Shown here piece by piece: positions 226-14,157 of a stretch of 14,157 nucleotides of DNA (positions within the stretch are counted from its first letter, which is position 1; each line of letters starts with the position of its first letter). The DNA is from an uncultured Porphyromonadaceae bacterium (lineage in GTDB: Bacteria; Bacteroidota; Bacteroidia; Bacteroidales; Muribaculaceae). Both the position numbers and the translations under genes were made by a program. Where the stretch lies: assembly GCA_947174735.1 (NCBI GenBank), contig CAMWKC010000027.1:1-14157 (forward strand). Reading direction: 5' to 3'. Under the pieces are notes generated by a model. That model did no database searches and was not told the DNA's origin. It was given only the letters and a program-made list of their open reading frames with translations.

Positions 226-243
226 ACTAACCTTTACCCACAA
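226..243 (+). repeat. Left terminal inverted repeat of the IS
   Basis: ACTAACCTTTACCCACAA is an exact reverse complement of 1747-1764; after one mismatch a further three bases match. The transposase stop codon (234-236) lies within this repeat, so its last residues are encoded by transposon-end sequence. Confidence 0.9.
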
Positions 244-1712
244 GTAGCTCCCATTTTCAAGAGGTATTGATAGATCATTTCAATTCTATCAATACCTCTT
301 TTGAATGTTATCAGTCCGGGCTTGGGTTGTGAAGGCATGGCAGACCATCCGCCTACGCATGCCACAGCCCAAGCAGCCCAGGCCAGAGATCCCTTTGGGT
401 AAGGGTTTTTATAAATTTTCTTTCCACTATTGAACTCTTTGTTTAGGTTATCCACTATCTTTAATTCCAATTGAGTGAATACAAGCGATACCGGTGCTGT
501 GTCATCCTCACTGTCAAAGCCTTTTTTCAATAAGGCTGTTTGGTAAGCGCTCTTGATGCATACGGCAAGATTTATCTCAAATGCATGCGGACTCTCAACC
601 TGTATATCCTCTATTGCGAAGCCTTTTTTCTTCAACAACCGATGGTAGTCCTCGATAAACCAACGTCTGCGGTAAATACTGACAATCTTCTCCGCATCAT
701 TTACATCTGCCAGTGGTATCGATGTAAGTAACAACCAGTCAATCCTTTCGGCTTCCTTTACGGATGAGCTTTCTTCCGTAAGGCGGACAAAATACAGTTC
801 AATACTCTTTTGGAGATATACCGGACTATGCGGTCGTAAGAGGGTGACTTTCCCATATCTTACGTTAACCTCTGCCTTGCGTTTGCCTTTACGCGGACCT
901 TTGCTTATGGAGATTTCACGGGTGGTTTCTACAGGAACTCCCGCTGTATATTCAAATAACCCGGCCTTACTTCCATCCGGCAGCCGTATCTTTCGATTTT
1001 TGGCGGCTCTGACCACTATGTCGAAATTCTTCAGCTCGGATGGAAGTGTAAGCAAAGGGTACATATCGCCCTCTCTGTCCTGAACAGATATAATATGTAT
1101 GTCCTCATCCAGGAAAGCTCTTATCTCTTTCGGGGTATCAATCCATCGTGATGATTCCGAGTCCCGCTCAGCGACGGGAATGTTATACTTATAACGGGTT
1201 TTACCGCTTTCGGAATCGGTAATGTAGTAGGAAAGCTGTCTTTTGCGGTCAGCCCTGATGTCCTCTTCCCTAACCCGGCTCAACGGTTTAGGCGAGCGTC
1301 CCCATATCTGCAAATGACCCAACCCCAGGGGTACACCTGTACATGAATCCATAACGATAGCTGAATGGGAACGCATGCCTTTGTTAGTGTGGAGGCATTC
1401 CAACACCTCACGGCCTCCCTTCTTCAAACGACTGACGATATTTTCGCGGACTACTTCCATTGTATCCTGTACAACTAATATCTCGTTTATTTTCAATGCC
1501 TTGATATTGTCATACAGCTGTGACCTCATATCCGACACAATGGCTTCAAGGGTAACTTTCTCATTGTTGATGAAGCGATAGGCCCTCTTTCTGTCGGCCG
1601 CATCCGGACATGCACGATTAATGACAGCACTGCCTTGGGTACTCATACTCTCAACTAACGATTCATATTCTTTGTCTAATCGTAAATCATTAAAGATACT
1701 CTGACTTTTCAT
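234..1712 (-). CDS. IS4-family (Tn5/IS50-like) DDE transposase
   Basis: This 492-residue protein catalyses cut-and-paste movement of the surrounding IS. Residues about 1-60 resemble the Tn5-type N-terminal DNA-binding domain (ADRKRAYRFINNEKVT near 39-54). The RNase H-like catalytic core shows the expected acidic triad: D83 in VVQDTMEV, D212 in SVQDREGDMY, and E354 in the signature Y347-x2-R350-x3-E354-x6-K361. The beta-strand-rich stretch between D212 and E354 fits the insertion domain of this family, and the C-terminal WAAWAVACVGGW and FKRGIDRI segments resemble Tn5-type tails. Length is normal for the group. The start at 1712 lies 52 bp inside the right IS end, leaving room for an element-borne promoter. 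No frameshift or lost catalytic residue is seen, so it is probably active. Confidence 0.93.
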   Translation of the reverse strand: MKSQSIFNDLRLDKEYESLVESMSTQGSAVINRACPDAADRKRAYRFINNEKVTLEAIVSDMRSQLYDNIKALKINEILVVQDTMEVVRENIVSRLKKGGREVLECLHTNKGMRSHSAIVMDSCTGVPLGLGHLQIWGRSPKPLSRVREEDIRADRKRQLSYYITDSESGKTRYKYNIPVAERDSESSRWIDTPKEIRAFLDEDIHIISVQDREGDMYPLLTLPSELKNFDIVVRAAKNRKIRLPDGSKAGLFEYTAGVPVETTREISISKGPRKGKRKAEVNVRYGKVTLLRPHSPVYLQKSIELYFVRLTEESSSVKEAERIDWLLLTSIPLADVNDAEKIVSIYRRRWFIEDYHRLLKKKGFAIEDIQVESPHAFEINLAVCIKSAYQTALLKKGFDSEDDTAPVSLVFTQLELKIVDNLNKEFNSGKKIYKNPYPKGSLAWAAWAVACVGGWSAMPSQPKPGLITFKRGIDRIEMIYQYLLKMGATCG

Positions 1713-1846: not shown

Positions 1847-3403
1847 TCAATCGTTTGCTGTTGACTTCATTGACTTTTCTATCCACGCAAAGAGGTCATC
1901 GAGGTTGTAGTCGCCGGAATGGGGACGATTCCACGGCAAGAAGAAGTTGACATCGTAGCCGGCATTTTTCAGTTTGGTGGCTAAGTTGATGGGTACGAGA
2001 AATGAAGTGTCACGGTCTTTGGCACCATGGCGTATATACCATTTGGGAGCTACATCGGTACTTACCCGGTCGCCTATAAAATTCATCGGATTCATAAGAT
2101 AGACCCGCTTAACCATTTCGGCAGACAGTGTATCGGTAGGATTATGTAGGCGATGCTCCAGAGAAAAGTTGGTGAAATTGTTAGGATTGCCATCAGCATC
2201 AGCAAATAACCGGTTTTCAGGCGACGGTGTAGGTATAATCACACCCATCTGGTCGAAAGCGGGCGGCGTCTTCAAAGGCTGTACCGAAGCCACGTAACTC
2301 AGATACTTATCAAGGTCTACACTCTCCACAAAATCAGTTGACATATTGAATCTCGGACGCTGACCGCCGGGAGCAGAGTTACCCGGGCCAAACGAAGGCG
2401 CCGCACGACCATCATCACCAAAAGGATTCTCCGACAGTCTTACTATGCCTATAGAGTCAGGAATATCCGCACCTTCCTCAAGTGCCTTATGTGCCGAGGC
2501 AGCAATAAAAGTCTTCAGATAATCCCGGTAATTATCAGCCGTTATCAGTTGACCTTTGTCATCGCGAAGTTGTAGCGAATTGATATAAGCCGGTGCGAGA
2601 GCCGCCAATTCATCAGAGATACGGCACTGTTCAGGGTCAAGATTACGCACACCGTGGTTTGTACAGTTATACAACCATTCATACTCCATATCAGCATGAT
2701 TAAGGTCAGTGATAGGACAATAACATATAGCACCGTACACATTGTCTTTTGTCTCGGCTGCACCCATAGCTTCAAGATACGGCTTATATTCCTCACGGTT
2801 AGCTGTCGTGCCTATCAAAGCTGACATCGCACCGCCGGCACTTGTGCCGTCAATGAAGATACGTTCGGAATTGCCGGGGATACGTGTGTCATTATACCTC
2901 AGATAACGCACCACAGCCTTCAGGTCGAGCAGACCGTTAGGTGCGATGCCGGTATACACTTCTTTACCGTCACGCTTCACCACCGAATTTGAACCTCTCA
3001 CACCCGGAATACACACCACATAACCTTCCTGCAAAGCACGGCCCGTGGCATCGGTAGCCGACGGAGTCTTGGCTGCAGAAGCCATATAGCCACCGACATA
3101 CTGGCGTAACAGAATAGGCACCTCGCTATCCTTACGGCCCTTCATATCTACCGGCACATAGATATTAAGAGTCTGATAAACGGAATCCTCCACATTACCC
3201 ACATAGAATATTCCTTCGTAGCCTCTATAAGCCACAGTATCACCCGAAGGCATCACAAGTGAATCGGTTCTGTAACCTGCCGGAGCAAATTCAAGCGAAG
3301 CAGTCTCCGCTTTTTTCTCCGACTGCTGTTGTTGCGGCCCGCAAGCCACAAGCGACGTCACAGCCACTGCTCCGACGCCCATAATAAGTTTCTTTACCGT
3401 CAT
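1847..3403 (-). CDS. Tannase-like (subtype B) alpha/beta-hydrolase lipoprotein, probable esterase
   Basis: The 518-residue product has a lipoprotein signal: hydrophobic residues 5-20 and lipobox LVAC with Cys21, followed by a Gln/Glu/Lys-rich linker, so it should be a membrane-anchored envelope esterase. The nucleophile elbow is IDGTSAGGAMSA with Ser188 in GxSxGG. The C-terminal RHGAKDRDTSF supplies Asp463 and Asp465, and NRPHSGDY supplies His495. The 32-residue Asp463-His495 spacing equals what I recall for the Asp419-His451 pair of Lactobacillus plantarum tannase, whose Asp421 (Asp465 here) contacts the galloyl group; those numbers are from memory. CYCPITDLNHADMEYEW (228-244) also looks typical of tannase-related proteins. 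Galloyl esters are therefore possible substrates, but feruloyl, acetyl or other acyl esters cannot be excluded. It lies 28 nt behind the DUF5119 gene, probably in the same transcript. Confidence 0.78.
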   Translation of the reverse strand: MTVKKLIMGVGAVAVTSLVACGPQQQQSEKKAETASLEFAPAGYRTDSLVMPSGDTVAYRGYEGIFYVGNVEDSVYQTLNIYVPVDMKGRKDSEVPILLRQYVGGYMASAAKTPSATDATGRALQEGYVVCIPGVRGSNSVVKRDGKEVYTGIAPNGLLDLKAVVRYLRYNDTRIPGNSERIFIDGTSAGGAMSALIGTTANREEYKPYLEAMGAAETKDNVYGAICYCPITDLNHADMEYEWLYNCTNHGVRNLDPEQCRISDELAALAPAYINSLQLRDDKGQLITADNYRDYLKTFIAASAHKALEEGADIPDSIGIVRLSENPFGDDGRAAPSFGPGNSAPGGQRPRFNMSTDFVESVDLDKYLSYVASVQPLKTPPAFDQMGVIIPTPSPENRLFADADGNPNNFTNFSLEHRLHNPTDTLSAEMVKRVYLMNPMNFIGDRVSTDVAPKWYIRHGAKDRDTSFLVPINLATKLKNAGYDVNFFLPWNRPHSGDYNLDDLFAWIEKSMKSTAND

Positions 3404-3431: not shown

Positions 3432-4406
3432 TTACATTGGAATGTCGATATTCACCGACTGCCACTCATCTACGTCAGGCACAAGACCTCCGCTGATGAT
3501 AGGCTGCGGAAATTCAAGCCCGCGCAATACTATATGCACATGCTGCGGGTCCGGAGCCTTGGCTACCTGATCTGTCACATCGGCATTATATATCCACTTT
3601 GAGCCATCTTCAAGAATAGTGTACACTTTAAGAATATGGTCAGGACTGGCATCCGGCCGCACACCGAATGTCAGAAATTCGGAATGTAGCGACGAATCTT
3701 TCAAATCCTTAGTCATGACCACACTCATTGTGGCCTGCGTAGCCGAAGCCTGATTCTTTCCTACGACATGACCCTCGGCCATACCCGAAAGAGAAGCATC
3801 AATCTCCTCACCCGTAAGATACTGAAGATTTTTTACATTATATATATCTACCGTGTAGTAACATACACGTTCCTCAGGATAGAGTACTATTTCCTTTTCA
3901 GTATCAGTCATCGACGGCCGCAACAGTATATCGTCAGTACGGCAACCCCATGTCATCTCGGGAGTTTTCACCATTCTTTCCGTACTCCCCTCTTTGCGCG
4001 GCAGCGAATGTACCGGCACACCGAGAACAGCCAATGCCTCAGCCTCGCCGGTACATATCTCAAACGACTCCACTCCCTCGGCATTACGAAGAACAGCCCA
4101 GTCAGTGTTGTCGGAATTCATACCTAAAGCTGCAAAAGAACCGAACGGCAGTCTTATCGTACCGCCGCTTATGTCTGAAAATATAAATCGTATCGCCTCG
4201 CCCTGATAATCTATAGACAGCGAAGTGCCGATAGGGAAAAAATAAGCCGCCATCGACTCCGGAGCAGCATCAGGAGCATTTTGCCAGTCAAAGACGAGTC
4301 GGACTCTCAGATTGGGCGAAGCATCATTAATCAGATCCTTATGTCGGCAACTCCCCAACAGCAGCGGGAGTAACAGCAGAAATCCTATAATAAATTTAGT
4401 ATTCAT
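3432..4406 (-). CDS. DUF5119-family lipoprotein
   Basis: I choose the ATG at 4404-4406, giving 324 residues, because it begins a textbook lipoprotein signal: MNTKFIIGFLLLLPLLLGSC, lipobox LGSC with Cys20. An in-frame ATG at 4539-4541 would add 45 mostly basic residues ahead of the signal peptide (see the leader feature). The mature part looks like the DUF5119 family of Bacteroidales envelope proteins: an early FDW followed by a proline-rich turn, a YFFP segment, and the C-terminal sequence HIVLRGLEFPQPIISGG followed by VDEW. Family members have no established activity; some lie near fimbrillin-type genes, but none is visible here. No catalytic motif is seen. It is followed after 28 nt by the tannase-like gene, so the two probably act in the same pathway. 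Confidence 0.75.
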   Translation of the reverse strand: MNTKFIIGFLLLLPLLLGSCRHKDLINDASPNLRVRLVFDWQNAPDAAPESMAAYFFPIGTSLSIDYQGEAIRFIFSDISGGTIRLPFGSFAALGMNSDNTDWAVLRNAEGVESFEICTGEAEALAVLGVPVHSLPRKEGSTERMVKTPEMTWGCRTDDILLRPSMTDTEKEIVLYPEERVCYYTVDIYNVKNLQYLTGEEIDASLSGMAEGHVVGKNQASATQATMSVVMTKDLKDSSLHSEFLTFGVRPDASPDHILKVYTILEDGSKWIYNADVTDQVAKAPDPQHVHIVLRGLEFPQPIISGGLVPDVDEWQSVNIDIPM

Positions 4407-4434
4407 TTTTACTGTGGGATTAAATGGCGCAAGG

Positions 4435-4462
4435 ATAAAAAGCCTTCCGTCTCGGACGGAAG
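4435..4462 (-). terminator. Intrinsic terminator or attenuator ahead of the DUF5119 gene
   Basis: Read on the minus strand, CTTCCGTC (4455-4462) and GACGGAAG (4444-4451) form a perfect 8-bp stem with a 3-nt loop, followed by GGCTTTTTATCC. This is a convincing Rho-independent terminator shape. It lies 145 nt beyond the HTCS stop but only about 28 nt before the DUF5119 start, so it could end the HTCS transcript or act as an attenuator in the leader of the next operon. Confidence 0.7.
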
Positions 4463-4480
4463 ACCGATGTCTACGCCTCC

Positions 4481-4511
4481 CGACATTATTATAACTATTC
4501 AGAAGACCAAA
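4481..4511 (-). promoter_or_regulatory. Possible Bacteroidetes-type promoter for the DUF5119/esterase pair
   Basis: On the minus strand TTTG (4508-4511) is followed, after 19 nt, by TAATGTCG (4481-4488). This partly matches the Bacteroidetes pattern of TTTG near -33 and TAnnTTTG near -7: the first box is exact, the second matches four of six fixed bases. If used, the transcript would start just before the hairpin and could not include the ATG at 4541. Confidence 0.22.
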
Positions 4512-4607
4512 AATTCTCCGCTTTCCGGACGGTTTTAACATAAAATTCTCCTATAGGCTCTTTTTTCGTCATTTAAACCCACATATCACCAGCACTAATA
4601 GCAGACT

Positions 4608-7600
4608 TTATCTGCTGACAGCACACCCGGCAGAATAACGTTCCGTGTATTCGGAAGGCTTTATACCGAATTGCTTCTGAAAGCAGCGTGTGAAATAAGA
4701 AGCACTGTTAAAGCCCACCTTCTGGCTGACCTCAGCTATGGTGAAACGGCCTCCGGCCAAAAGTGCGGCAGCGCGCTTCAGACGCGTTATCTGTATCAGC
4801 TCACGCGGAGTCATACCCGACACATTGCGGATTTTGGCATAAAGACTCGAACGGCTCATACCCATCTGAGCCGCCACATCATCAACGCTGAAATCAGGCC
4901 GTTCGCAATTATCAGCTATCGACTGTTCCAGACGTTGCAGGAAGTTATCGTCCGCCTCTGTCTGTGCCAGTTCGGTCAGCGGAGCAGTCGGCGACTCGGC
5001 ATAACGGCGTTTCAGGAGAGCACGCATATCAAGCAGATTACGTACACTTGCTTCAAGATAGCCTGTAGAGAAAGGCTTTTCAATATAAGCGTCGGCGCCT
5101 GTACGTGTACCTTCGATTTTGGATACATTATCTGTTTTGGCTGTAAGCAGTATCACAGGTATATGACTGTAACGCTCATCGGCACGTATGCGGCTCAGCA
5201 CACCCAGTCCGTCAAGACGCGGCATCATCCAGTCACATATAACAAGGTCAACATCGTGACGTCCGAGTGCATCCATAGCTTCCTCACCGTCAGCAACCTC
5301 GACTACTTCATAATTATCTCTGAAATGCGAGGCTATAAAACGTCGCATTTCTTCATTGTCGTCAGCCACCAGCAAAGTCGGACGTCTATCTGAAGCCACC
5401 GGATGCTCTGCAGAAGTCTCTCTATACTCCGGCTGTCCGGCGGATATAACACGGGCTGAGACCGTTTCCTTTACTGTCGGAAGATTTCCTGTTCCCGCCT
5501 GTTCAAGAGGCAGCGTAACAGTAAAAGTAGCTCCTTTGCCGGGTGTAGATGTTACCTTGACAGTACCGCCGTGTGCATCCACTACTCCTTTGACTATACT
5601 CAGTCCCAAGCCTGTACCTCCTTTTGATTCGTTGACAGTTTCCAAAATCTGATAAAACGGTCTGAAAATTTTCTCGGTATTATGACGGCTTATACCTATA
5701 CCGTTATCGGTGACAGCAATCGTCACACCTGACCCGTCAGCCGTAAGGGCACATTCCACACGCACTACATCGCGTGTATATTTACGGGCATTATTGATAA
5801 GATTGCTGACCATCTTGATTACAGCCTCACGGTCAACAGTAGCAAGTATCTCAGCATCGGGTAGTATCACTTCCAACTTTCCGCCGTCATGTTCTATTGT
5901 GGAACGGAAACGTTCGGCCACACCGTTCACAAGTGCTGTCAGCTCTACTTCACGGAAATCGTCGAACCGTCCTGCCTGTTCAACTTTACGAAAGTCAAGC
6001 AGCTGATTTACAAGGTCGAGTAGTCTGTGACTGTTGCGGTCAATTGTATCAAGGTCTTCAGCCACCTTCGGACCTAATGAAGAGGCTGCTTTGGTAACAT
6101 TCTCAAGCGGACCTATTATCAGTGACACCGGTGTTCTTATCTCATGTGCCACTGTGGTGAAGAACCGCAGTTTGGAACGATACACTTCCTTCTCCTTATT
6201 ACTCGCCATACGTTCTATCTCGCGCCGGTGCAGCCGGTCACGACGTCTTATTACCCGATTAATCAACACACCGCATAATCCGGCGAAAAGCAAAGCATAC
6301 AAAATCTTCATCCATATCGTAGCATACCATGCCGGTAATACAGTCACCTTCAGCGAACGAGTAGGTACCGGACCACCGCCCTGACCTACTCCGCGCACAT
6401 ACAAAGTGTAATCGCCAGGCGGCAGATTGGTGTAAGTGCAGCGTCCCTCCTCACCGGCCTCAATCCATTCGCGGTCGAAACCGTCAAGCCTGTATTCTAT
6501 ACGGTTACGTGAGGGATTGGTATAACTCAGCACACTGAAATACAGACTGAATGAGTTGTCCGACTCACTCAGTTTTAATTCATCGAGCCGGTTGGGCGAT
6601 ACGGGCAGCCAACGGCTACCCACATTCACTGTGGCGTTAGCTATGTCGAGGCCTGTCAGCGCTATTTCAGGTGTGGCCGGAGGCGGAAGCGGTGCCTGCG
6701 GATTTATGGCACACAACCCGGTGACACTACCGAAATACAGCGAACCGTCCATGCTTTCGAGGGCTGCTCCGGGCTGAAACTGTGAAGCTGTCAGACAGTC
6801 AGCCGCTCCGTAACTTTCAAGCCTCCCGTCCGGACGCAAACACGAGAGACCTTTGGAAGTAGCTATCCACAGGCCGTCATCGCCTTCAGCTAAGGCCTCT
6901 ATCATCTGAACGGGCAACTCAAGCGCCATACGGCTGAAACTCCTGCTGTCCGGGTCAAAAACGTTCAGTCCGTCAAATGTAGCTACAAGCACCTTGCCGT
7001 CACGCGACACCTTGACCTGATTGGCGTGTGCATGAGACAACGAACCTGCCGCAGCACCCGGCCGGTAGTTGACCCACTCGTCATGAGCCGGGTCATAGCA
7101 GTAAACACCGCGCCCCTGTGTCGATATCCAAAGCCGTCCGCGTGTGTCTTCAGCCATTGAGCTTATCCAGCTGCCGAGGTCCCGAACTTTCACAAGAGAG
7201 TCTGAGGCAGGATCATAACGTGTCAGCCACTCTGTAGCTGACACCCACATCGTTCCACGTGAGTCGCGCATCATAGCGTATGTACTATAATGACGGTCGC
7301 TGTCACTTAAAGGAATATGATGCCAGCTTCCATGTTCCATATAACCTGCGCCTCGTGCATACGAACCTATCCACAATCGTTCCCTGTCTGCATACAGAGA
7401 GTGTATATTTACTTTAGGACCATCTTGTATATGAAGCACGTCATAATGTGTGAAATGACCTGTAGCGGGTGAATAAGAACTTAATCCACCATCGTCCGAC
7501 CCAATCCATATATAACCGTCGGTATCCTCAGCTAACGCCGAGATAATATGTCCTGCCACAGAGTTTACAAACCTTGAAGGTCGCCACTCTCTGAAACGTC

Positions 7601-8651
7601 CGGCTCCGGGTACCACATAGTTCAGTCCGCGATAGAACGTACCTACCCACACTCCTCCTTCACGGTCTGTAAGCAACGGATATATAAACTGATCGGAAAG
7701 ACTGTACGGATTTAGTTCATCGTTGACATACAGATGACATTCGCCGGTCGACATATTCATACGGCAGAGACCTCCGTCAGAACCTATCAGCATATACCCG
7801 TCGCCATACGAAGTCATTGAGTGTATATGTTCAGCTCCCGGACATTGTGCCGGGCTGAGCATACGCACTGCATGTCCGTTGCGTGCGTCGAAACAAAGCA
7901 CACCGTTATTCCACGTACCAAGCCAGTAGCGTCCGGTGTTATCCTGCCATATACATAAGGCCGAAGTGTCTACCGGACGACCGTCTATAGTCAGAGAAAA
8001 AGGACGGAACACACCGGCACCACGGTCATAGCGATAGAGCAGTCCGCTACCGAGTGAGCTGACGGCCCACAATTCACCGGCCGAATCCTCAAGCATCATG
8101 GCGAGATAATTCGAACACTCCGGAAATTCATAACGTTGCTTCACTGTACAGCCGTTGCTTATCTGGCAGATACCGCTTCCGTCAACCGACAGCCATACGT
8201 CACCGCGACGGTCTACTAAAACGTCGCGCACATTGCCTTCAATCTGTACCGGTCGTTCAAGACTATCCTTAAGTATAATAGGTGTCAGTCGTTCGGTTGC
8301 AGCGTCATACAATTGCAGACCTTTATCAGTGCCTACGAGAATATTATCTTTATACACCGCTAAACTCATGGCATAACGGCCACAATCTCCGCCGTCACAG
8401 CGTACAGGCTCGAAAGTACGGAAACGTTTGCCGTCATAGCGCACCAGACCGCCATCAGTCGCAAACCATACGAAACCTGTACGGTCCTGCACTATGTCGC
8501 GTATACAGTTAGAGGGCAGTCCCTCTTCAGTGGTGTAATGACGGAATTTCAGATCGCTGCCAGGCGCAATCTGCCGTGCACCAGCAGACACGGCACACAC
8601 CATCATCACCAGCACTATACATACTGTCCGCAGCATTTTTCTGAATCTCAT
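4608..8651 (-). CDS. Hybrid two-component system (HTCS) sensor kinase/response regulator with AraC output
   Basis: This 1347-residue one-protein signalling system senses a ligand in the periplasm and activates nearby genes. It has a signal peptide (about 1-26), then about 14 propeller repeats of the form W-hydrophobic-(G/A)-T/S-x-x-G-hydrophobic (about 35-650), consistent with two seven-bladed Reg_prop propellers. A Y_Y_Y domain (about 695-770) and a membrane segment (about 779-798) follow. The kinase has its phospho-acceptor at His836 in TVAHEIRTP, N-box NLINNARKY, G1 DNGIGI (982-987) and G2 GGTGLGL (1011-1017). The receiver (about 1091-1205) has Asp1097/1098, phospho-acceptor Asp1140 and Lys1192. 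An AraC HTH ends the protein (about 1250-1338, VGFNSASYFTRCFQKQFG). All key residues are intact. GGAGG lies 3 nt before the start codon. The 51-nt gap from the metallopeptidase gene shows no terminator, so they may be cotranscribed. Confidence 0.95.
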   Translation of the reverse strand: MRFRKMLRTVCIVLVMMVCAVSAGARQIAPGSDLKFRHYTTEEGLPSNCIRDIVQDRTGFVWFATDGGLVRYDGKRFRTFEPVRCDGGDCGRYAMSLAVYKDNILVGTDKGLQLYDAATERLTPIILKDSLERPVQIEGNVRDVLVDRRGDVWLSVDGSGICQISNGCTVKQRYEFPECSNYLAMMLEDSAGELWAVSSLGSGLLYRYDRGAGVFRPFSLTIDGRPVDTSALCIWQDNTGRYWLGTWNNGVLCFDARNGHAVRMLSPAQCPGAEHIHSMTSYGDGYMLIGSDGGLCRMNMSTGECHLYVNDELNPYSLSDQFIYPLLTDREGGVWVGTFYRGLNYVVPGAGRFREWRPSRFVNSVAGHIISALAEDTDGYIWIGSDDGGLSSYSPATGHFTHYDVLHIQDGPKVNIHSLYADRERLWIGSYARGAGYMEHGSWHHIPLSDSDRHYSTYAMMRDSRGTMWVSATEWLTRYDPASDSLVKVRDLGSWISSMAEDTRGRLWISTQGRGVYCYDPAHDEWVNYRPGAAAGSLSHAHANQVKVSRDGKVLVATFDGLNVFDPDSRSFSRMALELPVQMIEALAEGDDGLWIATSKGLSCLRPDGRLESYGAADCLTASQFQPGAALESMDGSLYFGSVTGLCAINPQAPLPPPATPEIALTGLDIANATVNVGSRWLPVSPNRLDELKLSESDNSFSLYFSVLSYTNPSRNRIEYRLDGFDREWIEAGEEGRCTYTNLPPGDYTLYVRGVGQGGGPVPTRSLKVTVLPAWYATIWMKILYALLFAGLCGVLINRVIRRRDRLHRREIERMASNKEKEVYRSKLRFFTTVAHEIRTPVSLIIGPLENVTKAASSLGPKVAEDLDTIDRNSHRLLDLVNQLLDFRKVEQAGRFDDFREVELTALVNGVAERFRSTIEHDGGKLEVILPDAEILATVDREAVIKMVSNLINNARKYTRDVVRVECALTADGSGVTIAVTDNGIGISRHNTEKIFRPFYQILETVNESKGGTGLGLSIVKGVVDAHGGTVKVTSTPGKGATFTVTLPLEQAGTGNLPTVKETVSARVISAGQPEYRETSAEHPVASDRRPTLLVADDNEEMRRFIASHFRDNYEVVEVADGEEAMDALGRHDVDLVICDWMMPRLDGLGVLSRIRADERYSHIPVILLTAKTDNVSKIEGTRTGADAYIEKPFSTGYLEASVRNLLDMRALLKRRYAESPTAPLTELAQTEADDNFLQRLEQSIADNCERPDFSVDDVAAQMGMSRSSLYAKIRNVSGMTPRELIQITRLKRAAALLAGGRFTIAEVSQKVGFNSASYFTRCFQKQFGIKPSEYTERYSAGCAVSR

Positions 8652-8702: not shown

Positions 8703-10046
8703 TTAACGTATTGGTTCGGTACCGCTGAAGGCTACAGCGTATGGCCACTGGGCATCACCGGGGTTATCAGGACCGTCGATGTTGCGCCAGTGCTCGGTTG
8801 GAGCACCCATCACCACAAGCCAGAGATGTGAAAGTGTAGTACCGGTCGGTACGGTGTAACTCAGATGTCCGTGCGGAGATGAGCCGATATCACTGTACAG
8901 AGTACGTCCGTCGGAAGTCACAGCAACAAAACCGTAACGCCAGCCTGCTTTGGCAGGATTATGCAGATAATAACCGTCAGCAGTAAGACCTGACTTATTC
9001 TTGGCGCCGACAAGACCGTCAAAATCCACAGTTACTTTCTTCCCGGTTTCAGGTACTTGTAAGGCTATGGTATTAAAACCGTAATTTTCAGGACAGTTAG
9101 CTGGAGCCGGACGCCATTTTCCTTTACCGGCCGAAAGTAATTCTGTGTGCCATAGGTTGGCGTATGGTGCGGCATTGGCCCGCACACGCTCGAAATCCCA
9201 GTTTATCTGTCGTCGCTGGTCAGTGAACATCGTGTCGCAGAACGCCTTTTGGTCAAGTCCTGTAAGACGTTTATATGTCATGACGGGGTCTTCTCCTATC
9301 TGCCCCTGACGGAAAAGCTCGGCAATAAAAGGCAGACCGTGACGCTCGCCCCATGCTTCAAGTACGTATGGCGAATGATAGATATTATCTATATGTAGAA
9401 AAGCCTTATGCGTCAGGTCACGATAGGCACTGAGATGATAGTTCTCGTCAGTCTGCCAGTCAGGATTGACCTGCCACAGCATCCACTGTGAAGCCATCTC
9501 ATAGAAGCCGGCGCCGCCCCACCCTACACCTTCACCGTCACAACTTATCTGTGTCTGGAACGAATGTCCCAATTCATGAGCTATACAGTTGAGGCGTTTA
9601 TCCTGTACACGGTTCGGTGTAATCCACAGAGCACCTATCTCGTCATCGTAGGCACCGCCATAGGCAGTACCCTCGAGCGAGTAATCAAGCATAACCATCA
9701 TTTTGTAACGGTCAGCTTTGGTGCCGGACTTAACAAACTTCATATCATTACGAAACACATCATAGAATGATTCGAGTCTGTCAAGCAGATTAGCCATATC
9801 CACATTCATGTTGTTACCGTCGAGCTGAGGTGCATCGCCGATATTGCCGCCGAATCCGGGCGCCCAGAAAAGCACGATGTTGTCAGTGGCAGCCATACGG
9901 CTGAAACTCCATTTGCTTGAAGGGTCGCTGAAGTCATTGTCAGCCAGTTCTTCCGGCAGATATATCGACTTGCCTGTATAATCCGCACCCGCCGCTGTAA
10001 ATGCGAGGGCAGCCGCAAGAACAATAGTAAGTAAGCTATGTCGCAT
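8703..10046 (-). CDS. Secreted DUF6055-like zinc metallopeptidase (short paralogue)
   Basis: The 447-residue product has a Sec signal peptide (MRHSLLTIVLAAALAFTAAG, probable cleavage near residue 21) and no lipobox Cys, so it should be periplasmic or released. The core carries CIAHELGHSFQ with zinc ligands His157 and His161 and catalytic Glu158. Glu183 in FYEMASQW is a plausible third ligand 26 residues after His157, a gluzincin-like spacing. The C-terminal part (about 322-445: YGFNTIALQVPETGKKVTVD, GWRYGFVAV, DAQWPY) looks like a beta-rich module. Core and module align well with the larger protein at 10171-12477, so the two are paralogues. I assign them to the DUF6055 type from memory of that family; peptidase activity follows from the motif, and substrate is unknown. 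It lies behind a terminator and just before the HTCS gene. Confidence 0.75.
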   Translation of the reverse strand: MRHSLLTIVLAAALAFTAAGADYTGKSIYLPEELADNDFSDPSSKWSFSRMAATDNIVLFWAPGFGGNIGDAPQLDGNNMNVDMANLLDRLESFYDVFRNDMKFVKSGTKADRYKMMVMLDYSLEGTAYGGAYDDEIGALWITPNRVQDKRLNCIAHELGHSFQTQISCDGEGVGWGGAGFYEMASQWMLWQVNPDWQTDENYHLSAYRDLTHKAFLHIDNIYHSPYVLEAWGERHGLPFIAELFRQGQIGEDPVMTYKRLTGLDQKAFCDTMFTDQRRQINWDFERVRANAAPYANLWHTELLSAGKGKWRPAPANCPENYGFNTIALQVPETGKKVTVDFDGLVGAKNKSGLTADGYYLHNPAKAGWRYGFVAVTSDGRTLYSDIGSSPHGHLSYTVPTGTTLSHLWLVVMGAPTEHWRNIDGPDNPGDAQWPYAVAFSGTEPIR

Positions 10047-10089
10047 ACTATCGGTTACTTATATATATGATTGATTACCACAAATCGGA

Positions 10090-10121
10090 TAAAACACGGG
10101 GACGGCCGTCAGACCGTCCCC
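10090..10121 (-). terminator. Intrinsic terminator between the two metallopeptidase genes
   Basis: On the minus strand GGGGACGG (10114-10121) pairs with CCGTCCCC (10098-10105) around an 8-nt loop, followed by GTGTTTTATCC. The stem is GC-rich and the tail U-rich. It lies about 50 nt after the stop of the large metallopeptidase gene and should end or reduce the susD-side transcript. The remaining 40 or so nt before the next start hold TTTG (10081-10084) and an AT-rich TATATATAAG stretch, which could be a promoter but match the Bacteroidetes consensus poorly. Confidence 0.75.
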
Positions 10122-10170
10122 GGTTGCTACACAAAGTTAAGGATTAGATTTTCAGTAGCAGTTTCGACTA

Positions 10171-12477
10171 TCAATAGTTGAGCGAAATCGTATATCTCAA
10201 TGTGTAGACCTTACCGTCGTGCATGTAGGTAAGAATAGGACGCATTGAGAAGGTACCGGTAGTTTCCTCGGTTATCTGACCCGGATGGTCACCATAGTTA
10301 AGGGTAGTGCCGTCAATTTCGAAGAAGGTGTAACCGCCTGCCCACTGGCCTTCGTTACCGTCGGCGTCAAGCCAGAAACCGTTGTTAGCGCTTGCAGTAG
10401 TGTTGAGCGAACCATCGGTATTTTCAGCAAGCAGCGAGATTATACCGTCAGCTGGCATCTCACCCACATGGATAAGCTCGGCTAACTCATCGGCCGATAT
10501 GCCGAAGATGTCAAGTACGGGCTGTGCGGCAAGGTCTACAGAACCACGGCCGTACTGACCGGGGGCTGAAAGTTTCACCTCGTATGTGACAGTCATGTTA
10601 TATTCATCCACAAGATTATAGACAGGCTCAACCTCCTCTACATAATAAGCAAGGTCGGTACCTTCGAGTCTGATAGTGTATGGGAACTGGGCATCGTCAG
10701 CCTCATTGTCATTCCATGCATGACCTATATACTCTTCAGGTGAACCCTGTACCACGAGATAAAGGTAGTCGGTACCGGCAGGCACGTTGAATGTCAGACG
10801 ACCGTTGCGGTCCTTTCCGGCCTCACTGTATGTGCGATGGTCACCCGTACGGGCTACAAAACCGTAACGCCAGCCCATGTTACCGTCAGCTACTGTGTTA
10901 TTATAGTTAGACGTGTTGCCTACAGCCTTGCCGTCACCGTCAACCATAGTACCCTTATCTTTGGCATGGAGAGCACTGCCTGCTGCCAGACCTTCGAAAT
11001 CAACAGTTACCTCACCGCCGCCTTCGGGCACTTCAAGTGCTATGACATTGAAGCCAGTAGCACCCGGACACTGCTTGTAGCTTATCTGATAACGACCTGT
11101 CACGTAATTGAAATACATCTTGGTGTCATAACGGTCCTGATGGTCCTCACGTGCATACTCCTTAACACCGTCAATATCGAATGTAGCCATACGCATGGCG
11201 TAGTCGAACAGCTGTTCGCGTGTCTGGCTGTAATCGTTACCGTTATAAAGACGTGTATAGGTCATTATAGCATCTTCAGGATATACAGACTCTTTCCAGA
11301 TACGTCCGTAAGCGTCGAGACCGCTGCGATTTACCCAATAAGTCTGTAAGTAGTAAGATGCATAACGCATCCACTCGTTATGGAAATGGCGGTGACAGTT
11401 GTCGAGCCATACCTGGAAGTGATAGCTGTCAAGCTGTTCCTCCGGATAATCACGTTGTGCCTGCCACTGTGCGCACTGCTCCCAGTAACCGCAGCCGGAG
11501 TCACGGTTGACGAAACCGTAACGGAAGCCGTGATTGTAATTATTCTCAAAGCCCTGTTTATTGACTTTATCAGCATATACCTGATACTGGAACGAGTGGC
11601 CTATCTCATGTGCGATAGTAGAACCAACTGGCTGACATGTTGAAGGATTAACCCACAACGCACCGATGCTGTCATCATAACCTGAACCGGTGGCAAGCCA
11701 TTCGTCCTGATAGATGAGATATATCTCCATCTTGTAGTCGTCAAGCATCGATTTATTCTCACCCAACGTAGCCATCTGCAACTTATTGATATTGGTATCA
11801 AAGAAATGCTCGGCCTTAGCCAACAGGTCATCTATATCGACACGCATGGCTGCGGGTACACTCTCGGCATTGGGATTATCACCGAATTCAGGTGACCAGA
11901 ACACGAAGAAGTGTTCAGACTGCTTCATACGGTGCCATGAATAATAGGCGTCATGACGCAACATGTATTCGGGTCCGTTTTCGAAGTGAGGATTCCAGGC
12001 CGCCGGGCAGAGATATTTGTCGTAGTCCTTGATGTCTGCGGGGGCGAGTAGGAGAACTTTATAAGCCTGTTCGACACTGATGACGATAGTCTCGCCTTTG
12101 ACAGTGGAGATTGTCACCTGCGCTATACGGCTGTTATGTATATCTTCGTTAGGCTGTACGGTCAGCGTCAGATGCAAGTCGGCACCGGCTTCGCCCTCGG
12201 CAGGCGATATAGAAGCCCATGTGCAGGTCTCGCCGGCCTCATCAAGCACGACGGCTGTCCAATCCATATCAGCTGAGAAAGGTATGTCGATGGTTGTGGC
12301 ATCGGCAGTGACAGTAAAGTCAGCTTCGCCGGGCACTATCTCACCCTTATAGCGGGGATCGAAGTCGGCGTGGCGCTTGCTCATGTCGTCGTCCGAGCAA
12401 CCTGTGGCCATGGCTGCAAGAGCGCCTAACATCAGGCAGCCCATACCTTTCAGTATATAATTATGTGTTGATTTCAT
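10171..12477 (-). CDS. Surface lipoprotein: BACON, DUF6055-like metallopeptidase and DUF4859 modules
   Basis: The 768-residue protein has a lipoprotein signal with Cys27 (ATGC) followed by SDDD, which resembles the acidic export signal of surface-exposed Bacteroidetes lipoproteins. A BACON-type beta-sandwich (about 50-140) ends in TIVISVEQAYK and probably acts as spacer or ligand binder. The metallopeptidase core (about 175-460) contains STIAHEIGHSFQYQ with His290, Glu291 and His294; Glu333 in YWEQCAQW is a candidate third ligand. A beta-rich module (about 472-608) matches the C-terminus of the short paralogue. Residues about 625-768 form a DUF4859-like module (LDIFGISADEL, NNGFWLDADGNEGQW). 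It probably cleaves protein or glycoprotein at the cell surface and passes fragments to SusC/D; substrate is unknown. It follows the DUF4859 lipoprotein gene by 28 nt and is closed by the terminator at 10090-10121. Confidence 0.8.
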   Translation of the reverse strand: MKSTHNYILKGMGCLMLGALAAMATGCSDDDMSKRHADFDPRYKGEIVPGEADFTVTADATTIDIPFSADMDWTAVVLDEAGETCTWASISPAEGEAGADLHLTLTVQPNEDIHNSRIAQVTISTVKGETIVISVEQAYKVLLLAPADIKDYDKYLCPAAWNPHFENGPEYMLRHDAYYSWHRMKQSEHFFVFWSPEFGDNPNAESVPAAMRVDIDDLLAKAEHFFDTNINKLQMATLGENKSMLDDYKMEIYLIYQDEWLATGSGYDDSIGALWVNPSTCQPVGSTIAHEIGHSFQYQVYADKVNKQGFENNYNHGFRYGFVNRDSGCGYWEQCAQWQAQRDYPEEQLDSYHFQVWLDNCHRHFHNEWMRYASYYLQTYWVNRSGLDAYGRIWKESVYPEDAIMTYTRLYNGNDYSQTREQLFDYAMRMATFDIDGVKEYAREDHQDRYDTKMYFNYVTGRYQISYKQCPGATGFNVIALEVPEGGGEVTVDFEGLAAGSALHAKDKGTMVDGDGKAVGNTSNYNNTVADGNMGWRYGFVARTGDHRTYSEAGKDRNGRLTFNVPAGTDYLYLVVQGSPEEYIGHAWNDNEADDAQFPYTIRLEGTDLAYYVEEVEPVYNLVDEYNMTVTYEVKLSAPGQYGRGSVDLAAQPVLDIFGISADELAELIHVGEMPADGIISLLAENTDGSLNTTASANNGFWLDADGNEGQWAGGYTFFEIDGTTLNYGDHPGQITEETTGTFSMRPILTYMHDGKVYTLRYTISLNY

Positions 12478-12505
12478 TGCTGTCAGGTAATTTCTGTATT
12501 ATTGA

Positions 12506-13507
12506 TTACTCGAATGTGGCGTTGAGTATGTAAGACAGCGCCTTGCTGTGGTCAGCCTGCAGAGCGGCACCGAACTTGATAAGGTACTGTGCGCCCGAGG
12601 GAACACCGGGATAACGGCCTATACCGTAGCAGTGCTCGTCATATTCAGGGTCGAACCACGGCTCTATATAGTAGACACAGCCGTCGCCCCAGCCCATTAT
12701 AGAACCGTCGCCGCCACACCAGTAACCGCCGTTATTGGCTGTTGACTGACCGTCCCATATAAAGGCGTTGGTAGCATGGTCTATCATAAATGTACCCATC
12801 GTGCCGTCTTCGATAGCAGCCTGGAACTGAGCTACGTTCATGCCGAATACGTACTCTATGTTCTCAGCAAAGTCCGACCAGTCCCATTCATAAGCGGCAT
12901 AGTCGCCTGCCGGTATGGTTATGTCGCGGAATACATAGCTCTTATCGTATGCCGTAACCGACATGATGAAGCGTACATGTGTATTGTAGTTCGGTCCCAC
13001 TTTGGCGAAACCCATTTCCATAGGCACGTTACCGCCGCCATTAGGGTCAAGATAGAACTCAAAACGGTGCTGTTCGGCATTGAATACTAACTTACCATAT
13101 ATATTCTCATCTTCACTGCCGCACACATTGGCGTTCTTGTTCAGATACCAGCCGTATTTATCACCGGTGTTGGAGTCGGCTTTCACCCATACGCTACGGT
13201 TGGGATTGATAGGATACACAACATATTCGCTGCCGAGTTTAGCTATTACCTCCTGTGCCGAAACACCGAAAGCGGCCTGTATCATTTCTTCGTAGTCGTA
13301 GACATCAAGTGTCACCGGGGCGTTATCACCGGCCTGCATCTCGTAGCTCCGGGTGGCTGTAACAGCGGGATCAGCCTTAACCGGCGGATTCTCGTCTGGT
13401 CCGTAGACATGTATCTTCGACGAGTCAGCGTAATCATGCTCGCACGAGGTAGCACCCGTAAGCAGTGCGCCGGCGACTAATACGCAGAGTGTTATATGCT
13501 TGTTCAT
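12506..13507 (-). CDS. DUF4859-like tandem-module lipoprotein, putative surface ligand-binding protein
   Basis: The 333-residue protein has a lipoprotein signal (MNKHITLCVLVAGALLTGAT then SC; Cys22) and an acidic CEHDYAD start to the mature chain, suggesting surface display. Two related modules follow. Module 1 (about 60-190) has AAFGVSAQEV and GWYLNKNANV. Module 2 (about 196-333) has YVFGMNVAQF, NNGGYWCGGDGSIMGWGDG and YGIGRYPG. The same pattern recurs in the C-terminal module of the metallopeptidase encoded downstream, so I call all three DUF4859-like. Many exposed Trp and Tyr residues fit ligand binding. No catalytic motif is visible. Its place directly after susD, 18 nt away, is where SusE/F-like surface-binding proteins are usually encoded. 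Confidence 0.72.
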   Translation of the reverse strand: MNKHITLCVLVAGALLTGATSCEHDYADSSKIHVYGPDENPPVKADPAVTATRSYEMQAGDNAPVTLDVYDYEEMIQAAFGVSAQEVIAKLGSEYVVYPINPNRSVWVKADSNTGDKYGWYLNKNANVCGSEDENIYGKLVFNAEQHRFEFYLDPNGGGNVPMEMGFAKVGPNYNTHVRFIMSVTAYDKSYVFRDITIPAGDYAAYEWDWSDFAENIEYVFGMNVAQFQAAIEDGTMGTFMIDHATNAFIWDGQSTANNGGYWCGGDGSIMGWGDGCVYYIEPWFDPEYDEHCYGIGRYPGVPSGAQYLIKFGAALQADHSKALSYILNATFE

Positions 13508-13525
13508 TGGTCTGTGGCTTTTATA

Positions 13526-14157
13526 TTAATATGCGTATCCGGGATTCTGCTTCAGGTTGGGATTACCCTGAAGGTTATCGCGAAGAATGGGGAATATATC
13601 AAGATGATGATCAGTCGGGTTAGTGTTGGGAAGCTTATCAAACCAGCTCTTGCCGTTGAACACGTTACAGCCGTTGGTCAGTTTGAAGCGTATCAGGTCC
13701 TGACGACGGTGATGTTCGTACGGGAATTCCCAGGCGAGCTCATCAAGCAGACCGCCTAATATGATGTCGTCACCGCCTTCGTGTGTCTCGAACACTTCAG
13801 TCACGTTAAGTTCACCTGTAGCATTGTCAATCTCACCGTGAGTGGAGCGACGTCCGTAGTCATATACCGAACCACCCTTGAGTTGTTCTACAGTACGGAT
13901 TGCCTTAGCGGGATTCGAGGCAAAAGCACGCTGGCGCACCTGCGATACAAGATCAGCGGCTACTTGCTCGGTCTCACCCTTATAGCCTCCGAGACGCAGC
14001 AGACACTCGGCCTTAATCATCATGGCGTCAGCCAGACGGAAGAAAGGTACGTTACAGTTGCTGGTACCGATATTACCCGGTTCTATTTCATAGAGCCACA
14101 GACGTGCACCCTGCATACCGGCTGCACCCGGACTCTCGATTGAGTACACTTCAGGAG
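13526..14157 (-). CDS. SusD/RagB-family nutrient-binding lipoprotein, C-terminal part (5' end outside window)
   Basis: Only the last 209 or so residues are visible; the frame runs off the window edge, so the GTG at 14147-14149 is not a real start (Pro-Glu codons continue upstream). SusD proteins cap the SusC TonB-dependent channel at the cell surface and hand over ligand. FRLADAMMIKAECLLRLGG is the typical TPR-like helix, LLDELAWEFPYEHHRRQDLI followed by RF is the C-terminal RagB/SusD signature, and PNLKQNPGY near the end is the usual tail. A complete member is about 500-600 residues, so over half is missing here. susC should lie immediately upstream. It is the first visible gene of a run with 18- and 28-nt gaps. 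Confidence 0.93.
   Translation of the reverse strand, partial: PEVYSIESPGAAGMQGARLWLYEIEPGNIGTSNCNVPFFRLADAMMIKAECLLRLGGYKGETEQVAADLVSQVRQRAFASNPAKAIRTVEQLKGGSVYDYGRRSTHGEIDNATGELNVTEVFETHEGGDDIILGGLLDELAWEFPYEHHRRQDLIRFKLTNGCNVFNGKSWFDKLPNTNPTDHHLDIFPILRDNLQGNPNLKQNPGYAY

What the first reader, a model, noticed from the sequence alone, without database searches (positions are those of the whole stretch)
8703..14157. SusD locus built around two metallopeptidase-like proteins with no visible CAZyme
Most Sus-type loci pair SusC/D with glycoside hydrolases or lyases. Here the SusD gene is followed by a binding lipoprotein and two HExxH proteins, and an HTCS is next in line. This suggests a system for protein, glycoprotein or glycopeptide capture, in which surface peptidase action replaces or complements glycan cleavage. 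The motifs and gene order are seen directly; the substrate is inferred, and glycan-active genes could lie outside the window.
Basis: partly seen in the sequence, partly recalled or inferred. Interest (0 to 1): 0.7.

Follow-up and report, generated by a model that had tools for sequence, protein, structure and literature searches.

The report
Gut locus for eating plant extensins
The two peptidase genes belong to a wider gut-bacterial gene set that appears built to take apart extensin-like plant wall glycoproteins, protein backbone and sugar side chains together, a target for which no such locus turned up in the papers searched.

Summary
In detail: a SusD fragment, a DUF4859 lipoprotein, two HExxH proteins and an HTCS lie where stated. 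Both HExxH proteins are DUF6055 (PF19527, MEROPS M106), relatives of the Svx peptidase that cleaves plant extensins. "No CAZyme" is an artefact of the contig end. The locus continues on another contig of the same genome, and a roughly 90-99% identical locus in a sister genome is unbroken: GH127, SusC, SusD, DUF4859, M106b, M106, HTCS, with divergent GH97, GH43 and GH127. These families match the linkages of extensin glycans (beta-L-Araf chains on hydroxyproline, a terminal alpha-L-Araf, alpha-Gal on serine). Parts of the set recur in 80 named loci, 7 with M106-GH43 fusions; some have linked X-Pro-type peptidases, arabinose genes or hydroxyproline dehydratase. Within the genus, hydroxyproline dehydratase occurs in 3 of 7 M106 genomes and 0 of 54 others. 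Best reading: a hydroxyproline-rich glycoprotein (extensin-type) utilisation locus in which peptidases and glycosidases cooperate. Arabinogalactan protein is the main rival. Nothing was assayed; the window genome lacks a detected hydroxyproline dehydratase; Svx's arabinan-recognising domain and two of its sugar-contact residues are absent here.

The parts
13526..14155 (-). SusD, C-terminal 209 residues; the N-terminal part is on contig C16 (L054:1-1092)
   Evidence: PF07980 75.6 bits, cut-off 23.1; 14-base exact end overlap of C27 and C16, adjacent on L033
12506..13507 (-). Lipoprotein with two DUF4859 stretches, probable surface glycan/glycopeptide-binding protein (role inferred)
   Evidence: PF16151 70.9 bits; lipobox followed by C-EHDY; model pLDDT 88, beta-sandwich-like with no informative PDB match
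10171..12477 (-). M106b: BACON + DUF6055/M106 peptidase + DUF4859, predicted surface lipoprotein
   Evidence: PF19527 438.9, PF16151 46.7, PF13004 28.5 bits; lipobox C-SDDD
11596..11610 (-). HEIGH zinc motif of M106b (residues 290-294)
   Evidence: invariant columns
11479..11481 (-). Third zinc ligand Glu333 of M106b (HExxHx38E)
8703..10046 (-). M106: DUF6055/M106 peptidase, 447 aa, hydrophobic N-terminus without lipobox (predicted periplasmic)
   Evidence: PF19527 476.5 bits; no lipobox; AlphaFold2 pLDDT 92.8
9564..9578 (-). HELGH zinc motif of M106 (residues 157-161)
   Evidence: H157, E158 and H161 invariant in 48 of 48
9498..9500 (-). Third zinc ligand Glu183 of M106 (HExxHx21E)
4608..8651 (-). 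HTCS hybrid two-component sensor/regulator
   Evidence: Reg_prop, Y_Y_Y, HisKA, HATPase_c, Response_reg, HTH_18; HTCS in 47 of 80 related loci
3432..4541 (-). DUF5119 protein, local add-on
   Evidence: PF17145 141.9 bits; in 1 of 80 named loci, L057, which is G045
1847..3403 (-). Subtype B tannase-like lipoprotein, local add-on
   Evidence: NF041556 417 bits, cut-off 300; in 1 of 80 named loci, L057, which is G045

Best explanation
This is one half of a locus for using plant hydroxyproline-rich glycoproteins of the extensin type. Proposed working (inferred): the surface lipoprotein M106b cuts the arabinosylated backbone; DUF4859 lipoproteins and SusD hold the glycopeptides; SusC imports them. 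In the periplasm M106 shortens the peptide further, GH43 removes the terminal alpha-L-Araf, the two GH127 enzymes remove the beta-L-Araf chain from hydroxyproline, and GH97 removes alpha-Gal from serine. The HTCS switches the locus on when a fragment is sensed. In some relatives X-Pro-type peptidases, arabinose-catabolic genes and hydroxyproline dehydratase lie in or next to the same cluster and could use the products. Shown: gene content, order, co-occurrence, conserved metal sites. Inferred: substrate, order of steps, compartments.
For: (1) M106 is related to Svx (NF040510, 82 and 44 bits), which cleaves carrot extensin but not mucin or concanavalin A (PMC13164431). (2) The unbroken sister locus holds GH127 x2, GH97 and GH43; the window's own continuation holds the same. 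(3) The linkages of Hyp-Ara4 are one alpha1,3, two beta1,2 and one beta-Hyp (PMC7263609); Ser carries alpha-Gal (PMC9266454). The sister GH97 sits with retaining alpha-galactosidases (614 bits against 145 for the best alpha-glucosidase). Three GH127 cysteines (C342, C408, C409) are kept in 34 of 34. (4) 9 of 13 same-genus M106 genes have GH127 within 20 kb, against 7 of 98 copied SusD rows not near M106. 26 of 41 genomes whose fetched stretch showed none of the three GH families have GH127 within 20 kb of an M106, against about 2.9 by random placement; three of these 26 are G022, G037 and G049 again. (5) 7 single proteins fuse M106 to GH43. (6) Aminopeptidase P in 4 and DPP IV-like S9 in 9 of 80 loci. 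(7) Hydroxyproline dehydratase over cut-off in 3 of 7 M106 genomes of the genus, 0 of 54 others (p = 0.00097), and on the same contig as an M106 locus in G049 and L127.
Against: No protein was assayed. The window's own genome, and G014, G037 and G045, have no detected HypD (the own genome is 72% complete). Outside the genus the HypD association is weak (3 of 4 against 9 of 36, p = 0.07). M106 lacks the left-handed beta-helix domain that Svx needs for extensin, and W136/G137 of Svx are not kept (0 of 48). GH127 also occurs in the arabinogalactan locus BT3674-87. 43 of 80 loci show no GH127, GH97 or GH43 within about 10 kb, and 15 of 41 genomes re-examined had no listed GH127 within 20 kb of an M106 on the same contig (the GH127 listing was cut). 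M106 genes in L066, L084, L097 and L098 sit in stretches without SusD, HTCS or these GH families. The own GH97 gene is split in two frames.
Confidence: 0.7

Rival explanations
1. The locus targets arabinogalactan proteins: GH127 and GH43 strip arabinose from the galactan and M106 opens the protein core.
For: [quoted passage not shown] GH127b is closest to 6ex6 (1125 bits). AGPs also contain hydroxyproline, arabinose and galactose (partly recalled).
Against: No GH2, GH16, GH30 or GH35 among Pfam matches of the locus proteins. Every ORF of 150 aa or more in the fetched stretches L067 and L068 is labelled SusC, SusD, DUF4859, M106, GH127, GH97, GH43, aminopeptidase P or EamA; genes beyond those 21-kb stretches were not seen. 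The GH43 subfamily was not resolved. M106's only characterised relative among the papers read acts on extensin.
Confidence: 0.15
2. A pectic arabinan or rhamnogalacturonan locus with beta-Araf caps, in which the peptidases are accessory.
For: GH43 enzymes act on arabinan (recalled); beta-Araf occurs in arabinan and rhamnogalacturonan-II (PMC10850190).
Against: No polysaccharide lyase or GH78 and only one GH43 gene among the locus proteins scanned; M106 is fused to GH43 in 7 loci; hydroxyproline catabolism would be unexplained.
Confidence: 0.06
3. General protein or mucin-type glycoprotein capture, as in the first reader's wording; the arabinose enzymes are coincidental neighbours.
For: The model resembles gluzincins, including M1 aminopeptidases, lugdulysin and, weakly, ZmpA; G049 has an extra M64 peptidase.
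Against: GH127 proximity is far above the SusD control and random placement; no sialidase, fucosidase or hexosaminidase among the locus proteins scanned; Svx does not cut mucin.
Confidence: 0.06

Closest known systems
Svx/AvrXca peptidases of soft-rot bacteria (NF040510)
   Same: Homologous peptidase region, HExxH...E zinc site; Svx cleaves extensin
   Different: Far below the family cut-off (82 and 44 against 625 bits); lacks the left-handed beta-helix domain and Svx's W136/G137; sits in a Sus-type nutrient locus, not as a secreted virulence gene
Bifidobacterium longum hypBA1/hypBA2/hypAA cluster and Xanthomonas euvesicatoria homologues
   Same: GH127/GH146-type beta-L-arabinofuranosidase and GH43 acting on Hyp-linked arabinofuranose chains
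   Different: Those clusters use GH121 and, in Bifidobacterium, an ABC importer, with no peptidase mentioned in the passages read; here SusCD/HTCS, two peptidases, GH97 and two GH127
Bacteroides arabinogalactan PUL BT3674-87
   Same: Sus-type locus with HTCS and GH127
   Different: Galactan backbone (literature); here no galactanase-type family was matched apart from the unresolved GH43, and there are two M106 peptidases. Whether BT3674-87 has M106 was not checked
PF19527/DUF6055 = MEROPS M106
   Same: Both HExxH proteins are members by score
   Different: Among the papers read, activity is reported only for the Svx branch

Membership tests
DUF6055/M106 peptidase family (PF19527) | Profile score over the curated cut-off | tested here: met
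   476.5 and 438.9 bits, cut-off 27
DUF6055/M106 peptidase family (PF19527) | HExxH plus downstream Glu zinc site in a gluzincin fold | tested here: met
DUF6055/M106 peptidase family (PF19527) | Peptidase activity | not testable with these tools
   needs purified protein
Svx/AvrXca (NF040510) | Score over the family cut-off of 625 bits | tested here: not met
   82.2 and 44.4 bits
Svx/AvrXca (NF040510) | Left-handed beta-helix (acyltransferase-like) domain | tested here: not met
   best stretches end at profile positions 420 and 443 of 601; the 447-aa model has helices, then separate strands matching beta-sandwich modules. That the helix domain of Svx follows position 445 is inferred from the papers
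Svx/AvrXca (NF040510) | Carbohydrate-site residues W136, G137, N171 | tested here: not met
   by offset from HExxH and the third Glu: NC 32, NA 10, ST 4, GV 2 of 48 in place of WG; Gln invariant in place of Asn
Sus-type polysaccharide utilisation locus | SusC/SusD pair, CAZymes and sensor in one cluster | tested here: met
   sister genome G045 and own contigs C27 and C16
GH127 beta-L-arabinofuranosidase | PF07944 and the catalytic cysteine motif | tested here: met
   397 and 433 bits in the own genome, cut-off 24.9; cysteines 342, 408 and 409 in 34 of 34. A cysteine nucleophile is stated in PMC10850190; which column it is, is recalled. The zinc-binding Glu was not counted
GH97 retaining alpha-galactosidase (NF053844) | Score over cut-off 800 | tested here: inconclusive
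   sister copy 799.7 bits; Asp and Glu at the positions recalled as nucleophile and acid/base aligned with 3a24; own copy split
Hyp-arabinan gene cluster of Bifidobacterium/Xanthomonas | GH121 beta-L-arabinobiosidase | tested here: inconclusive
   no such family among Pfam matches of the locus proteins; whether Pfam holds a GH121 model was not checked
Arabinogalactan PUL | Galactanases in the locus | tested here: inconclusive
   GH2, GH16, GH30, GH35 not matched; GH43 subfamily unresolved

The most novel reading that the evidence does not exclude
A previously undescribed, widespread class of gut Bacteroidales nutrient loci that eat whole plant glycoproteins: dedicated M106 glyco-peptidases, sometimes fused to an arabinofuranosidase, open the arabinosylated hydroxyproline backbone, and both the arabinose and the hydroxyproline are burned, linking extensin in dietary fibre to hydroxyproline metabolism in the gut.
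Probability: 0.55. Interest if true: 0.85.

Novelty: new variant of a known kind. Interest (0 to 1): 0.74.

Why it matters
Extensins are a structural protein of plant cell walls, yet the searches made here found no Sus-type locus for them. If right, the finding gives a function and substrate to two families of unknown function in Bacteroidales (DUF6055, and as binder DUF4859), shows peptidase and glycosidase genes united in one nutrient locus, and offers a plant source for the hydroxyproline that gut bacteria are known to metabolise. It is testable in named isolates: Bacteroides cellulosilyticus, Parabacteroides goldsteinii and Xylanibacter ruminicola carry M106 loci.

Tried and rejected
Sequence search of both HExxH proteins against solved structures gave nothing useful (best E 0.02 and 0.33). 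The DUF4859 model gave only low-TM beta-sandwich matches (TM at most 0.25 on the query in the 50 rows shown), so its binding role is inferred from the lipobox and gene order. Foldseek on the M106 model gave weak hits (best E 2e-4); the C-terminal CBM22/CBM29-like matches are suggestive only.

Limits of the counts. The SusD control uses 100 same-genus rows that I copied from the listing, which the tool had cut and which is ordered by score. Those 41 genomes were chosen because the fetched stretch showed none of the three GH families, which works against the association; three of them (G105, G107, G111) are G022, G037 and G049 again by contig and coordinates, and without them the figure is 23 of 38. 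L062 was not in the list given; its contig length equals that of L038 (G014). M106 carriers in the two-by-two tables are the 11 of 101 genomes over the family cut-off; three weaker ones (G084, G088, G096) were counted as non-carriers, and of them G084 has HypD over its cut-off. The 80 loci are the best 80 of 553 confirmed, so they favour close relatives, and they are not phylogenetically independent. Neighbour labels are phmmer or cluster matches to one reference each, with Pfam run on representatives only. Of the 14 loci labelled GH43, 6 owe it to M106-GH43 fusions; the seventh fusion (L113) is not among the 14. The lipobox test is a crude regular expression. The GH43 subfamily and the identity of 6ex6 (recalled as a Bacteroides GH127) were not settled. 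HypD was sought in 14 chosen genomes before the 101-genome control.

Papers: abstract and sections 6 and 9 (part 1) of PMC13164431; abstract and passages of PMC10815107; passages of PMC9266454, PMC7263609, PMC10850190, PMC3243724, PMC4454575, PMC11574389, PMC8106489 and PMC11241649; abstract of PMC6085000; search listings otherwise. The statement that no extensin locus of Sus type is in print rests on searches only, in an open-licence library.
Full report
What is in the window. The window is an entire contig (C27) of a fragmented, 72% complete genome. Its nearest relatives by locus are named as Muribaculaceae or Porphyromonadaceae MAGs, so the host is most likely a Muribaculaceae gut bacterium (inference). 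All genes of interest lie on the minus strand: the C-terminal 209 residues of SusD, a lipoprotein with two DUF4859 stretches, a 768-residue BACON+DUF6055+DUF4859 protein (here M106b), a 447-residue DUF6055 protein (here M106), an HTCS, a DUF5119 protein, a subtype B tannase-like protein and an IS4-type transposase.

Where the resemblance to Svx stops. The M106 proteins lack the left-handed beta-helix domain that Svx needs to cut extensin: the best profile stretches end at positions 420 and 443 of 601. The W-G pair that Svx is said to use for sugar contact is NC, NA, ST or GV in 48 of 48, and its Asn is an invariant Gln. They therefore work like a relative of Svx at best and are not Svx. In M106b, added BACON and DUF4859 domains might take over recognition (inference).

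The missing half. In G045, a same-genus genome whose locus proteins are about 90-99% identical, one 28.8-kb contig carries the unbroken arrangement: GH127a, SusC, SusD, DUF4859, M106b, M106, HTCS, DUF5119, tannase, with GH97, GH43 (plus F5/8C and LamG domains) and GH127b divergent. In the window's own genome contig C16 begins with the last 14 bases of C27, and both ends map side by side on G045. C16 carries the rest of SusD, SusC, GH127a, GH97 (split into 195- and 464-codon frames), GH43 and GH127b. The claim that no CAZyme belongs to the locus is thus refuted.

Why extensin. PMC7263609 (passages) gives the Hyp glycan as Araf-alpha1,3-Araf-beta1,2-Araf-beta1,2-Araf-beta-Hyp; PMC9266454 (passage) gives alpha-Gal on Ser. 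The locus offers a family for each bond: GH43 (alpha-Araf), two GH127 (beta-Araf) and GH97. The sister GH97 scores 614 bits to a retaining alpha-galactosidase and at most 145 to alpha-glucosidases, and lies 0.3 bits under the NCBIfam cut-off for retaining alpha-galactosidase. GH127a and GH127b match 6ex6 at 673 and 1125 bits and HypBA1 at 322 and 335 bits; cysteines 342, 408 and 409 are kept in 34 of 34.

Recurrence. The 80 named loci are the best 80 of 553; they are labelled as Bacteroidales-type organisms except L133, labelled Roseburia, which may be misbinned. Within about 10 kb: HTCS 47, GH127 28, GH97 17, GH43 14 (6 of them M106-GH43 fusions) and CotH 22 of 80. At least one of the three GH families is in 37 and none in 43. 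Some of the 43 are short or cut stretches. Searching 41 genomes behind 42 of those 43 loci, all 41 hold GH127, and 26 of 41 have a listed one within 20 kb of an M106, against about 2.9 expected by random placement; 15 of 41 do not. Three of the 41 (all three positive) are G022, G037 and G049 again, leaving 23 of 38. As a control for 'any Sus locus', 9 of 13 same-genus M106 genes lie within 20 kb of GH127 against 7 of 98 copied SusD rows away from M106. Two of the four misses are the window's own genes, separated from GH127 only by the contig break. By genome, GH127 is present in 7 of 7 M106 carriers of the genus and 14 of 54 others (p = 0.00027). Seven proteins fuse M106 to GH43 in one chain (one of them confirmed with Pfam).

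Backbone and monomers. Aminopeptidase P (M24) follows M106 in 4 of 80 loci and a DPP IV-like S9 peptidase occurs in 9 of 80; both classes are known for bonds at proline (recalled), and the closest NCBIfam models for the former are Xaa-Pro aminopeptidase and dipeptidase, below cut-off. Genes similar to the arabinose-catabolic genes of G049 lie in the fetched stretch in 7 of 80 named loci: L063 (G022), L075 (G049), L081, L082, L085, L092 and L096. In G049 one 62.8-kb contig runs from a hydroxyproline dehydratase gene (HypD, 1158 bits, cut-off 1100), GH97, aminopeptidase P, P5C dehydrogenase, arabinose isomerase and epimerase to the M106 locus with GH127 x2, GH97 and GH43. In L127, an uncultured Prevotellaceae genome (RUG280), HypD (1143 bits) and a glycyl-radical activase follow the HTCS of the M106 locus. 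HypD makes 1-pyrroline-5-carboxylate from hydroxyproline (PMC11574389, passage). In the genus HypD is over cut-off in 3 of 7 M106 genomes and 0 of 54 others (p = 0.00097), including 0 of 14 with GH127 but no M106; in all 101 genomes 6 of 11 against 9 of 90 (p = 0.0012); outside the genus 3 of 4 against 9 of 36 (p = 0.07). These genomes are not independent. The window genome, G045, G014 and G037 show no HypD, so hydroxyproline use is optional at most.

Compartments. A lipobox followed by acidic residues occurs in 22 of 40 M106b against 2 of 71 M106 proteins (crude test). This suggests M106b outside and M106 inside the outer membrane, the division usual for Sus-type enzymes (recalled).

Verdict. 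The locus is a Sus-type system, but of an unusual kind in which peptidases are core members. Extensin-type hydroxyproline-rich glycoproteins are the best-supported substrate (0.7). Arabinogalactan protein is the main rival, and the unresolved GH43 subfamily is one thing that keeps it open. In silico extensin use, argued from GH127, was proposed before for Latescibacteria (PMC4454575, passages), and Hyp-arabinan enzymes are known in Bifidobacterium and Xanthomonas (PMC7263609 passages, PMC6085000 abstract). No Sus-type locus with dedicated peptidases for this substrate appeared in searches.

Noticed in passing
L138:10489-11361 and L067:13761-16484: A 290-residue protein of the G049 HypD cluster has no Pfam or NCBIfam match, yet its family is fused to GH97 in 5 loci (904-909 aa: L067, L068, L078, L079, L126); possibly an unknown enzyme or binder for the same substrate.
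   Followed up: partly
window 1847-3403 and 3432-4541: Subtype B tannase-like protein and DUF5119 protein after the HTCS; among the 80 named loci only L057 (G045) has them. Tannins bind proline-rich proteins (recalled), which might explain the company.
   Followed up: partly
G000:C16 (L054:6931-8946): The GH97 gene of the window's own genome is split into two frames (195 and 464 aa); either decay or assembly error.
   Followed up: no
window 234-1712: IS4-family transposase at the contig end, a possible cause of the assembly break on that side.
   Followed up: no
L031:9546-10874 and other loci: CotH kinase-like protein inside the M106 cluster in 22 of 80 named loci; role unknown.
   Followed up: no
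L031:2822-4129: M64 (IgA peptidase family) gene next to the HTCS in G049, a further peptidase in the cluster.
   Followed up: no
L069, L071, L072, L073: In these Bacteroides loci an EamA transporter lies before the HTCS, and a tricorn-like S41 peptidase and a NigD-like protein after it.
   Followed up: no
L087, L090, L091, L115: A second M106 setting in Prevotella/Prevotellaceae with a fasciclin-domain protein, SusCD and a DPP IV-like peptidase, and no GH127, GH97 or GH43 in the fetched stretch; may address another protein substrate.
   Followed up: no
L133: An M106-GH97 neighbourhood in a MAG labelled Roseburia, which is not a Bacteroidales genus; misbinning or transfer was not examined.
   Followed up: no
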